Shown: positions 42,415 to 48,565 of the stretch, one piece after another | Layout: every line of letters starts with the position of its first letter | How positions within the stretch are numbered: position 1 is the first letter of the stretch | DNA from: Anaerosomatales bacterium | GTDB taxonomy: Bacteria; Actinomycetota; Coriobacteriia; Anaerosomatales; SLCP01 | Length of the DNA: 64,000 nucleotides | Assembly (NCBI GenBank): GCA_029210645.1 | Contig: JARGFT010000001.1 | Location: 244,883-308,882 of the forward strand | Direction of reading: 5' to 3' | Notes under the pieces: generated by a model | The model's input: the letters and a program-made list of their open reading frames with translations, nothing else | Told to the model about the DNA's origin: nothing | Databases searched by the model: none | Made by a program: the position numbers and the translations under genes

Positions 42415-42443
42415 TTGCATACCGAACATATGTTCGGTATGCT
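42415..42443 (+). promoter_or_regulatory. SOS promoter 1 with LexA box
   Basis: TTGCAT, 17 bases, TATGCT. The spacer is filled by the Gram-positive LexA box CGAACATATGTTCG (42423-42436), the core of a perfect 26-bp palindrome (42417-42442). LexA binding would cover both promoter elements. It drives the DUF6504-like gene and perhaps the two genes after it. Confidence 0.92.
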
Positions 42444-42472
42444 CTGTTCCCCTCGACGTAAGAAGGTCTCCC

Positions 42473-42892
42473 GTGGGCCACAACGCTGCAATCAAAGAGC
42501 ATCGCGCGCTTCCTGAAGGGCTCCCGCTCGACCTGTTCGACTCTGCCGAGGGCCGGCGTCCGATCGTGCTCGATCTGCTCGCCACGCCCTGGCTTGTGCG
42601 GGCCTCAGAACTCCGGCTACCGGGTGACGGTGGGCTCGGGCGCCGGATCGGCGAGGCGGTCGCGGTCTCGTGGGACGCAGCCCGGCATTCGCCGGTTGCG
42701 TTCGCGTGGCGCGGGCGGGTCTACGACGTCACCTCGGTCGTGCAGACCTGGGCGGTCGAGCACGCGTGGTGGGACGCCGGGCAGCGGGTGAGCCGGCGCT
42801 GCTGGCGGGTGCTCGCCGGAGACGGTGGCACGTACGACCTCGCGTTCGAACGCCTCACGGGCGCGTGGGTCCTCCTCGGCATGCAGGACTGA
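42473..42892 (+). CDS. DUF6504-like protein, SOS-regulated
   Basis: A 139-residue soluble protein. The C-terminal 80 residues (VAFAWRGRVYDVTSVVQTW, then HAWWDAG and RRCWRVLAGDGGTYDLAFE) have the WRG-Y-V...WW...R-WRV-G-G-YDL pattern I associate with DUF6504, a family that accompanies DnaE2/ImuB-type mutagenesis genes in actinobacteria. This is from memory, not a search. GTG 42473 follows AAGAAGGT. The LexA box 37 bases upstream shows DNA damage control. The molecular function is unknown. Confidence 0.8.
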   Translation: MGHNAAIKEHRALPEGLPLDLFDSAEGRRPIVLDLLATPWLVRASELRLPGDGGLGRRIGEAVAVSWDAARHSPVAFAWRGRVYDVTSVVQTWAVEHAWWDAGQRVSRRCWRVLAGDGGTYDLAFERLTGAWVLLGMQD

Positions 42893-46900: not shown

Positions 46901-47314
46901 GAGTCCGACCTGCGCGCACGCAGTGTGACGTTCGCGCACGACCTGCGCGGGCTGCGTGACCGCTCGAAGGTGCGTGTCTGCGGTGTGCGGGAGCGGGCGC
47001 AGACCCCGCGCACCCGCTCGGGAAAGCGCACGTGCTTCCTCACGCTCGAAGACGCGACCGGCCTGCTCGACGTCGTCGTCTTCGAGGATGCGCTCCAGCG
47101 GGCAGGGGAGACGATCGTCAAGCACCGCTGCTATCTCGTGGAAGGCACGCTGCAGAACAACCCCGAGCGGGGGTTGGCGATCGTTGCGGAGTCAGTGGCC
47201 CCCTACACGGTTCGAACCGCCTCAGGGACGCCCGTACGGCTTCGCAGGGGTGTTCCGAGCGGACCGATGGGATCCTCACTCGGCGGCGTCGGAGCTGCCG
47301 AGGAAGAGTTATGA
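43979..47314 (+). CDS. dnaE2: DNA polymerase III alpha subunit, DnaE2-like (error-prone)
   Basis: A C-family DNA polymerase of 1111 residues, as in the shorter DnaE2/ImuC group. The N-terminal PHP domain is intact (FVHLHVHSHFSFGDGAAGL, ALTDHQGFYG). The palm has the catalytic PDIDVDFDSARRDEVIEF near residue 410. A C-terminal OB-fold (KVRVCGVRERAQTPRTRSG ...) lies at about residues 995-1080. The LexA-box promoter directly upstream and a neighbouring dinB point to damage-induced translesion synthesis. No imuA or imuB gene is present in the window. GTG start. Its end overlaps dinB tail-to-tail by six bases. Confidence 0.9.
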   Translation: MGRNTSFVHLHVHSHFSFGDGAAGLAELIERAGEFGMDTLALTDHQGFYGALRFYRAAREAGMRPILGAEVVVESAGVSGEECDLPPEMRLALPAPVGFGRAAGSGFHLTLLVKDIGGYRNLCRLLARTHVRSATEPSVVALADLARCSEGLIALSGCPCGEAGSAVRVGNPGRARRALMRLAACFAPCDFYVELMHHLTPDSPRYIATLAALAESCRLPVVATNNVHYVHAEEFRLHDVLSSASARMSLPGPYERPNAELWLKPPAEMRRLFAAYPQACDATLEIAERCDLDLGLGSFHFPAAEVPRGETPYSVLSKAAWRGLEERYRPVTSVSVGRLQHELAIIEELGFPEYFLVVKEIVDFARRKGIRYSGRGSAGDSIVAYVLGITGADPIEYDLLFERFLNPARRQMPDIDVDFDSARRDEVIEFIYRRFGSEHVAMVATVNTMTARSAVRTAARAFGYGIDEVNALSRHLPWVSAHRLRDVLATYPECRSHPLHESRYEPVLEIAEQLDSCPMHLGTHLGGFIITREPIDTWTPLQWAAKGVVVSQYDKDDVEALGLVKMDILGLRMHSAITETVALARARVGDDAVPEPFDLVHDDPRVYETIASADTVGVFQLESSGQRNLNTRLRASRFDDVIAAISLFRPGPLEAEMITPFIRRRHGIEEVSVPHPAMADALADSYGVIVYQEQVLLVARAVAGFDLAEADSLRRAMTKGRSRAEMVRIRGHFIERALERGVEEGVAAEVFRQLEGFAAYGFNKAHAACFAVVSYASAWLRTYYPAEFAAAILNNEPMGFYTPRLVANDARRHGIALLAPHVNESRERYAVADAGRAIRVGLRDVHEMTARLLAAIECERTVRPFRDLADFLRRTRAEAQAAESLIRIGALDGLGVSEADRPPTRDEMLALLPELKATIAREGVAGDDVLLLAPGPVRPVEDTSHVSGWSPARRLSAELELVGLSLTCHPLELAESDLRARSVTFAHDLRGLRDRSKVRVCGVRERAQTPRTRSGKRTCFLTLEDATGLLDVVVFEDALQRAGETIVKHRCYLVEGTLQNNPERGLAIVAESVAPYTVRTASGTPVRLRRGVPSGPMGSSLGGVGAAEEEL

Positions 47315-48565
47315 CGAGCGCTCGTCTCCCTCCCGATCACCGGGAGACTGCGGGGGAGTGCCGGTGTCCCGGGCAGGATGGGCACCGTGGCGCAGGGATG
47401 TCGAGCCAAACCGTCTGTGCACCTCGTCGATGCTCTCGGCGAGTCGATCGAGTACTGGATCGGGCACGGGGGCCTCGTCGAGCAGGTCCATCTGTATCGC
47501 GCGTTCCTCGAACCCGCTCAGCCCGACCCCGATCAGGCGCACGCCCACACCCGGTGACCAGACCTCATCCAGGAGATCCAGGGTCGTCTCGACGATTCGA
47601 TCACGTGCGTCAGTGGGCGCGGGAAGCGTGCGTCGTACGGTACGGGTCGAGAAGTCACCGTAGCGGACCTTGAGCGTGACGGTTCTACCCGAGAGGTGTT
47701 TCGAGCGGAGTCGGCCTGCAACCTTGCCCGCAAGCGCGGTTATCGCAGAGCGGATATCGGCCGCGGTATGGAAATCCTCGGCAAACGTCCGCTCGTTTGA
47801 GACGGACTTCGCTGGCGGATTATCGCGGACAGGACGAAGATCGACACCCCGAGCCCGGTCGACGAGTTCCGGACCCCAGGACCCGACCACTTCCCGTGCG
47901 GTCGTCTCATCGAGGACCGCAACGTCACCAAGCGTGGTGATGCCGAGCCTTTCGAGCCGGCCAGCGGTGATCGAGCCTATGCCCGGCATGAGTCGCACCG
48001 GCAACGGGGAGAGAAAGGACGCCTCCTCTCCCGGAAGGACCATCGTGATCCCGTGGGGCTTGTCCCGGTCCGAGGCGATCTTAGCCACCGTCTTGTTGGT
48101 CGCGATTCCGATCGAGCACGACACGCCGAGGCGGTCGACCTCATCGCGGATGCGGGAGGCGATGGAGAGCGGGTGCTCCCCGGAGTGCGCACCGGGGGTG
48201 ACGTCAAGGTACGCCTCGTCTATCGATGTGGGCTGCACGTGGGGGGTGACGGAGCGGAAGATGTCCCTCACGGCGTGCGACACGTCCCCGTAGCGCTCGG
48301 CCCGCGGACGTGCCCACACGGCATCGGGACAGAGCGCGGCAGCCCGGGCGGCGGGCATCGCCGAACGGACTCCGAAACGCCGGGCCTCGTACGATGCAGC
48401 CGAGACCACTCCGCGGCGTGCGGGATCACCGCCCACGATGACCGGCCGGCCCCGCCACTCCGGATGATCGAGCTGTTCGACAGCGGCGAAGAAGGCGTCC
48501 ATGTCAACGTGGAGAACGGCCCTCCCGGACCAGTTCCTCGCGGATGTCGAATCGTGTTCGGCCAT
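47309..48565 (-). CDS. dinB: DNA polymerase IV (Y family)
   Basis: Translesion polymerase of 418 residues. The first catalytic Asp is in LHVDMDAFFAAVEQ, the YxAR element in SYEARRFGVRSAMP, and the catalytic Asp-Glu pair in QPTSIDEAYLDVT. The helix-hairpin-helix LMPGIGSITAGRLERLG and a little-finger domain follow. No beta-clamp motif is certain at the tail (GFEERAIQMDLLDE has a QxDL-like core and may serve). It converges on dnaE2 and is divergent from nfo. I see no LexA box in its own 80-base upstream gap. Confidence 0.94.
   Translation of the reverse strand: MAEHDSTSARNWSGRAVLHVDMDAFFAAVEQLDHPEWRGRPVIVGGDPARRGVVSAASYEARRFGVRSAMPAARAAALCPDAVWARPRAERYGDVSHAVRDIFRSVTPHVQPTSIDEAYLDVTPGAHSGEHPLSIASRIRDEVDRLGVSCSIGIATNKTVAKIASDRDKPHGITMVLPGEEASFLSPLPVRLMPGIGSITAGRLERLGITTLGDVAVLDETTAREVVGSWGPELVDRARGVDLRPVRDNPPAKSVSNERTFAEDFHTAADIRSAITALAGKVAGRLRSKHLSGRTVTLKVRYGDFSTRTVRRTLPAPTDARDRIVETTLDLLDEVWSPGVGVRLIGVGLSGFEERAIQMDLLDEAPVPDPVLDRLAESIDEVHRRFGSTSLRHGAHPARDTGTPPQSPGDREGDERSS

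What the first reader, a model, noticed from the sequence alone, without database searches (positions are those of the whole stretch)
42415..48565. SOS mutagenesis island with two nearly identical LexA promoters and a dnaE2-dinB pair
Seen: the same 14-bp box CGAACATATGTTCG fills the 17-bp spacer of two promoters (42423-42436 and 43932-43945), ahead of a DUF6504-like gene and a DnaE2-like polymerase. dinB lies tail-to-tail with dnaE2 and nfo follows divergently. Known: the ImuA-ImuB-DnaE2 mutasome is the usual actinobacterial arrangement, with ImuB bridging to the clamp. Inference: here DinB and the DUF6504-like protein may replace the missing ImuA/ImuB, making a differently composed mutasome.
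Basis: partly seen in the sequence, partly recalled or inferred. Interest (0 to 1): 0.75.

Follow-up and report, generated by a model that had tools for sequence, protein, structure and literature searches.

The report
ImuB-less SOS mutagenesis polymerase operon
This bacterium appears set to switch on an error-prone type of DNA-copying enzyme after DNA damage together with a small helper protein that is the detached tail of the usual adaptor ImuB; the arrangement is kept across its whole order, and its type was predicted for Actinobacteria in 2026 but, as far as found here, not tested at the bench.

Summary
Two identical palindromes (CGAACATATGTTCG) fill the 17-bp spacers of two promoters, ahead of a DUF6504 gene and a second DnaE; dinB lies tail-to-tail and nfo is divergent. 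The genome (1.98 Mb, 100% complete) has lexA, and similar boxes before recA, uvrA and a uvrD/pcrA-like gene. It encodes one Y-family protein (this DinB), hence no ImuB. DUF6504 is the ImuB C-terminal domain ("ImuB-C") as a separate protein: a true ImuB ends in it. In the order (Coriobacteriia, Anaerosomatales) 58 of 69 genomes carry it, usually directly before dnaE2, with an exact box upstream in 55 of 56 loci; no genome has a second Y-family gene. DinB has an intact active site and a RecA-NT-like tail, but no LexA box, and it persists where imuB-C and dnaE2 are lost. Possibly new: an order-specific ImuB-C extension with a clamp-motif-like xPLDLF; a near-intact PHP site in DnaE2; and, in two lineages where cargo split the operon, a dnaE2 that carries a copy of the imuB-C promoter, start codon and first codons.

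The parts
42415..42443 (+). SOS promoter 1: TTGCAT-17-TATGCT with LexA box CGAACATATGTTCG (42423-42436) in the spacer
   Evidence: layout conserved in 55 order loci
42473..42892 (+). Standalone ImuB-C (DUF6504), 139 aa; residues 1-48 are an order-specific extension, residues about 55-139 the beta-barrel ImuB-C domain
   Evidence: PF20114 E 2.7e-12; true ImuB matches PF20114 at its C-terminus; AF2 model pLDDT about 88-97 over residues 61-139
42521..42538 (+). Clamp-motif-like LPLDLF in the extension (order consensus QPLDLF), residues 17-22
   Evidence: D/E 53, L 56, F 50, Q 35 of 57 sequences; not found in the other standalone ImuB-C proteins examined
42961..43569 (+). DUF305 / CopM-like gene inside the former operon
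   Evidence: absent between imuB-C and dnaE2 in the congener L082
43601..43885 (+). Small membrane protein, SHOCT-like, part of the same insert
   Evidence: below Pfam cut-off; insert shared only with L084
43924..43952 (+). SOS promoter 2: TTGCCG-17-TACTCT with the same LexA box (43932-43945)
   Evidence: similarity to promoter 1 runs through the leader into codon 4
43979..43990 (+). First four codons of dnaE2 (MGRN), matching the imuB-C start and absent from unsplit relatives
43979..47314 (+). DnaE2-type C-family polymerase, 1111 aa; catalytic PDIDVDF present, PHP ligands HHDHEHCNH, no QVSMF-like clamp motif where DnaE1 has one
   Evidence: tree separates it from DnaE1
47309..48565 (-). DinB, the only Y-family protein of the genome; intact catalytic residues, clamp motif QMDLL, RecA-NT-like tail LAESIDEVHRRFGSTSLRHG
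48601..49509 (+). nfo (endonuclease IV), divergent neighbour, no LexA box (ORF bounds; likely start at 48646)

Best explanation
An SOS-induced error-prone translesion polymerase of the type DnaE2-[ImuB-C]-PolY-RecA, without ImuA or ImuB. LexA sits on the promoter spacers; on DNA damage RecA causes LexA cleavage, and ImuB-C and DnaE2 are made together. ImuB-C binds DnaE2, by analogy with the modelled ImuB-C/PHP contact in ImuB, and does ImuB's bridging job. The clamp is reached through DinB and perhaps through the ImuB-C extension. DinB, made without SOS control, is the likely Y-family partner and can contact RecA by its RecA-NT-like tail. In this genus a two-gene insert split the operon, and dnaE2 carries a second copy of the imuB-C SOS promoter, start codon and first codons, which keeps it under LexA. 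Shown: gene content, boxes, domain identities, absence of ImuB, order-wide conservation, the split and the transplanted start. Inferred: induction, complex formation, mutagenic activity, clamp binding, DinB membership.
For: Exact LexA-type box upstream of imuB-C in 55 of 56 order loci, and boxes before recA, uvrA and a uvrD/pcrA-like gene in the same genome. One IMS match in 63 of 69 order genomes, none with two. DUF6504 is the ImuB-C domain: Ensifer ImuB, next to ImuA and DnaE2, matches it at residues 428-504. imuB-C and dnaE2 are kept together and lost together: G309, G310, G321, G323, G347 and G358 lack both. DnaE2 is separate from DnaE1 in the tree. DinB catalytic residues and RecA-NT-like tail in all order members examined. 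Type described from complete genomes with AlphaFold support in PMC12926913.
Against: No expression, binding or mutation data. DinB is not LexA-boxed, runs on the opposite strand and remains after loss of the other two, so its membership rests on neighbourhood and motif only. The DnaE2 PHP metal site is near intact, unlike most error-prone DnaE2, so a high error rate is not assured. The profile match of the DinB tail to RecA-NT is weak (P 0.0064).
Confidence: 0.62

Rival explanations
1. The functional unit is only ImuB-C plus DnaE2 (and RecA or the clamp); DinB is an ordinary Pol IV that happens to be a conserved neighbour.
For: DinB has no LexA box, is convergent, and is kept in genomes that lost imuB-C and dnaE2, with its RecA-NT-like tail intact. 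A DnaE2-[ImuB-C] type without PolY is described for Actinobacteria (PMC12926913). The ImuB-C extension has its own clamp-like motif.
Against: dinB is next to dnaE2 in nearly all order loci that reach that far and lies downstream of dnaE2 on the same strand in 19 of 20 more distant actinobacterial loci, though those loci were picked for having a nearby IMS gene.
Confidence: 0.27
2. DnaE2 here is a SOS-induced repair polymerase with PHP proofreading rather than a mutator.
For: PHP ligands HHDHEHCNH in 30 and the full HHDHEHCDH in 23 of 54 order members, while most other actinobacterial DnaE2 sampled have degraded sites.
Against: DnaE2-type clade in the tree, no clamp motif where DnaE1 has one, and the link with ImuB-C, which elsewhere goes with mutagenic systems (PMC3765255). 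The window's own copy has Asn in place of Asp at one metal ligand.
Confidence: 0.2
3. The second LexA promoter came with the DUF305/SHOCT insert by horizontal transfer from a sister genus rather than by duplication inside this locus.
For: The second leader is closer to the imuB-C leader of another genus (68/80 with L089) than to the first leader in the same genome (59/77).
Against: The dnaE2 body groups with its own genus, and an independent split in L088 shows the same result with different cargo.
Confidence: 0.3

Closest known systems
DnaE2-[ImuB-C]-PolY-RecA of Actinobacteria (NAR 2026, PMC12926913; example Tessaracoccus lapidicaptus)
   Same: DnaE2 linked to standalone ImuB-C and an apparently active PolY with RecA-NT motif; no ImuA or ImuB
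   Different: dinB is convergent and unboxed; DnaE2 forms its own clade with a near-intact PHP site; ImuB-C has an N-terminal extension
DnaE2X system: iPolY + ImuB-C + DnaE2 (Kyrpidia type, PMC6511836 and PMC12926913)
   Same: ImuB-C next to dnaE2; several nearest non-actinobacterial DnaE homologs (Armatimonadota, Fermentithermobacillaceae) sit in such operons
   Different: their PolY lacks catalytic residues, whereas DinB here keeps them
ImuA-ImuB-DnaE2 mutasome (Mycobacterium, Caulobacter, Ensifer)
   Same: LexA control, DnaE2, and the ImuB-C domain
   Different: no ImuA found, no ImuB polymerase-like body; ImuB-C is a separate protein
Geobacter lexA-imuB-C-polY operon (PMC6511836)
   Same: standalone ImuB-C with an active PolY under SOS control
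   Different: no DnaE2 there

Membership tests
DnaE2-[ImuB-C]-PolY-RecA | DnaE2-type polymerase besides a replicative DnaE1 | tested here: met
   two DnaE genes; tree separates them
DnaE2-[ImuB-C]-PolY-RecA | standalone ImuB-C linked to dnaE2 | tested here: met
   PF20114; same domain at the end of a true ImuB; adjacent in most order loci
DnaE2-[ImuB-C]-PolY-RecA | active PolY with RecA-NT motif | tested here: met
   catalytic residues and RFG-type tail conserved; profile match to RecA N-terminus weak but in register
DnaE2-[ImuB-C]-PolY-RecA | no ImuA/ImuB in the genome | tested here: met
   single IMS, so no ImuB; ImuA model hits only recA and one weak RadA-sized RecA-fold gene, but that model is a poor detector: it passed its cut-off in no control genome
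DnaE2-[ImuB-C]-PolY-RecA | physical complex | not testable with these tools
   no multi-chain modelling available here
ImuA-ImuB-DnaE2 mutasome | ImuB: Y-family body fused to ImuB-C | tested here: not met
ImuA-ImuB-DnaE2 mutasome | ImuA, RecA-like partner | tested here: inconclusive
   no candidate found, but a true ImuA gives no Pfam hit at all, PF00154 included
LexA regulon | operator shared with known SOS genes of the same genome | tested here: met
   recA, uvrA and uvrD/pcrA-like boxes; four one-mismatch boxes before lexA
LexA regulon | induction by DNA damage | not testable with these tools
   needs expression data
DnaE2, error-prone | degraded PHP metal site | tested here: not met
   HHDHEHCNH here, full HHDHEHCDH in 23 of 54 relatives; exceptions among Actinobacteria are on record (PMC3919608)

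The most novel reading that the evidence does not exclude
In Anaerosomatales the ImuB hub has shrunk to a 139-residue protein: an ImuB-C barrel with its own N-terminal clamp-binding motif (QPLDLF), which alone recruits a PHP-proficient DnaE2 to the clamp, DinB being independent. When cargo splits the operon, SOS control of dnaE2 is rescued by a copy of the imuB-C promoter and first codons, seen in two lineages.
Probability: 0.25. Interest if true: 0.65.

Novelty: new member of a known kind. Interest (0 to 1): 0.45.

Why it matters
Most work on DnaE2 mutagenesis assumes ImuA and ImuB. Here a whole order keeps DnaE2 under LexA-type boxes with only the ImuB tail, so it offers a natural minimal system to ask which ImuB parts are needed: the ImuB-C/DnaE2 contact, clamp binding, or the RecA contact. 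DnaE2-driven mutation matters for how bacteria adapt under stress, and I found no bench test of the complexes predicted in 2026.

Tried and rejected
ImuB elsewhere in the genome: rejected, one IMS only. ImuA by the Pfam RecA model: uninformative, since a true ImuA gives no Pfam hit; the NCBIfam ImuA model then found only RecA and a RadA-sized gene. LexA control of dinB and nfo: rejected, no exact box in any relative and no clear excess over shuffles. DUF6504 as an unrelated unknown: rejected. Solved or viral structure resembling ImuB-C: none at E 0.001, in line with the published remark that the barrel has no close PDB match. RNA hairpin in the second leader that could hide the ribosome site: z -1.49, and -0.06 in L084, so not pursued. 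DUF6504 on plasmids: two weak hits, little help. Papers on DUF6504 by that name: none; papers naming Anaerosomatales and DNA polymerase: none.

Full report
What was checked. The two 14-bp palindromes are exact and at the stated places. Each fills the 17-nt spacer of a promoter: TTGCAT/TATGCT and TTGCCG/TACTCT. These hexamers are poor matches to the general consensus and a strict scan does not report them. Across the order, however, the same layout (TTGtat, box, TATACT) recurs before DUF6504 in 55 of 56 testable loci with no mismatch in the ten fixed box positions, against none of 280 shuffled sequences. The genome has lexA, preceded by four one-mismatch boxes, the first three 26 bp apart. Exact CGAACN4GTTCG boxes lie before recA, uvrA and a uvrD/pcrA-like gene; the reversed control pattern gave 4 places against 11. 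These are LexA operators by sequence and company; induction was not tested.

The host. The closest named relatives are metagenome-assembled Coriobacteriia, one labelled Anaerosomatales. The genome is 1.98 Mb in 46 contigs, rated 100% complete.

The genes. DUF6504 (PF20114) is the ImuB C-terminal domain. This was tested with an Ensifer ImuB that sits between ImuA and DnaE2: residues 428-504, its C-terminus, match PF20114 over the curated cut-off. It agrees with Aravind 2013 (PMC3765255) and Timinskas and Venclovas 2019 (PMC6511836). The window's DnaE is the second of two in the genome and falls with DnaE2-type enzymes, away from the genome's own DnaE1, in the tree (quick search, some deep forks open). 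DinB is the only Y-family protein of the genome, and no order genome has two, so ImuB is absent. ImuA is not seen, but its models are weak detectors.

Order-wide pattern. 58 of 69 order genomes have DUF6504. The usual order is PTPS - DtxR-like - (FeoB) - box - imuB-C - dnaE2, then dinB convergent and nfo. Genomes G309, G310, G321, G323, G347 and G358 lack both imuB-C and dnaE2; in several, dinB then stands next to the DtxR-like gene with the operon gone. So imuB-C and dnaE2 form one unit and dinB can live without them. dinB and nfo have no exact box in any relative.

DinB. Catalytic residues (D-[ML]-DAFF and S-[IV]-DEA), a QxDLF-type clamp motif in most members and a tail of the form D-x-[IVL]-xx-[RK]-FG are kept throughout the order, also where dnaE2 is lost. 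The tail aligns with the N-terminus of the order's RecA in register (SIDEVHRRFGSTSL with TKEQIERKFGKGSL), P 0.0064. That supports the published RecA-NT motif but is weak on its own.

Phylum. 103 of 297 sampled phylum genomes have DUF6504; by my count about 78 of these have just one IMS gene. In 19 of 20 distant actinobacterial loci fetched, the order is box - imuB-C - dnaE2 - dinB on one strand; in a few of them the imuB-C place comes from the family search rather than from the tblastn. These loci were chosen because an IMS gene was near, so the share is biased upward. This matches the 2026 description of DnaE2-[ImuB-C]-PolY-RecA as an Actinobacteria-only type. Several nearest DnaE homologs outside the phylum (Armatimonadota, Fermentithermobacillaceae) sit in iPolY - imuB-C - dnaE2 operons whose PolY lacks catalytic residues, which looks like the published DnaE2X kind.

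Features that may be new. (1) Order ImuB-C proteins have a 45-50 residue extension, MGRNxAIKxFDPxxxGQPLDLF...PVxxELLxSPWIVRASxL. It is absent from the other standalone ImuB-C proteins examined, most of which start at or near the domain, except one on a Rubrobacter plasmid that aligns along it. The QPLDLF stretch resembles clamp-binding motifs: L 56, D/E 53, F 50 and Q 35 of 57; a loose pattern finds it in 41 sequences against 0.2% of shuffles. It has one residue more between Q and LF than the QxxLF consensus quoted in PMC12926913, and the window's own copy reads LPLDLF, without the Gln, so clamp binding is a guess. AF2 gives the barrel high confidence (pLDDT about 88-97) and the extension low (about 56-70), with one helix at 25-36. 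(2) The PHP metal site is HHDHEHCNH here and complete in 23 of 54 order members, whereas most other actinobacterial DnaE2 sampled have lost it; a subgroup of Actinobacteria with an intact site is on record (PMC3919608). (3) The split operon. In the congener L082, dnaE2 starts a few bases after imuB-C as MGES-FVHLH. In the window and L084 a DUF305-SHOCT pair lies between, and dnaE2 starts MGRNTS-FVHLH, with the box, leader and start matching those of imuB-C. In another genus of the family (L088) RES, MqsA-like, SecB-like, nucleotidyltransferase and HepT-like genes lie between, and dnaE2 starts MGRNANSS-FVHLH behind its own box. No unsplit order member shown has MGRN at the dnaE2 start, while G2, R3 and N4 occur in 54, 48 and 52 of 57 imuB-C proteins. 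So promoter, leader, start codon and first codons of imuB-C were copied in front of dnaE2, apparently twice, judging by the different cargo and genus. In the window the second leader is closer to that of another genus than to the first, so the source of the copy is open.

Judgement. Interest is moderate because of the order-wide minimal form and the promoter transplant.

Noticed in passing
L088 1981-2094: A fragment similar to DUF6504 (61% identity) lies upstream of the intact copy, with a Fic-family gene between: possible remnant of an imuB-C duplication behind the split operon.
   Followed up: partly
L121 (G361) and L243: The imuB-C-dnaE2 operon lies on another contig while the usual dinB-DtxR site is empty; its only exact box is 1.26 kb from imuB-C. 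Suggests the operon can move.
   Followed up: no
L194 and L196: DnaE2 homologs of 1393 and 1574 aa in other Actinomycetota, with extra sequence inside or at the ends, perhaps inteins.
   Followed up: no
L253 897-1008 (G000:C43, upstream of lexA): Four one-mismatch LexA-type boxes before lexA, the first three spaced 26 bp apart.
   Followed up: partly
L287 4561-9297: Rubrobacter tropicus plasmid with divergent lexA, an ImuB-C annotated as hypothetical that has the long extension, and a DnaE: a possibly mobile version of the unit.
   Followed up: partly
window 49640-50620: Glu/Ala-rich 326-aa protein with a Cys-containing C-terminal end, no Pfam family, next to nfo; matches recur nearby in most order loci.
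   Followed up: no
window 43954-43979: Leader of the second promoter can fold into a hairpin over the ribosome-binding region; not significant against shuffles.
   Followed up: yes
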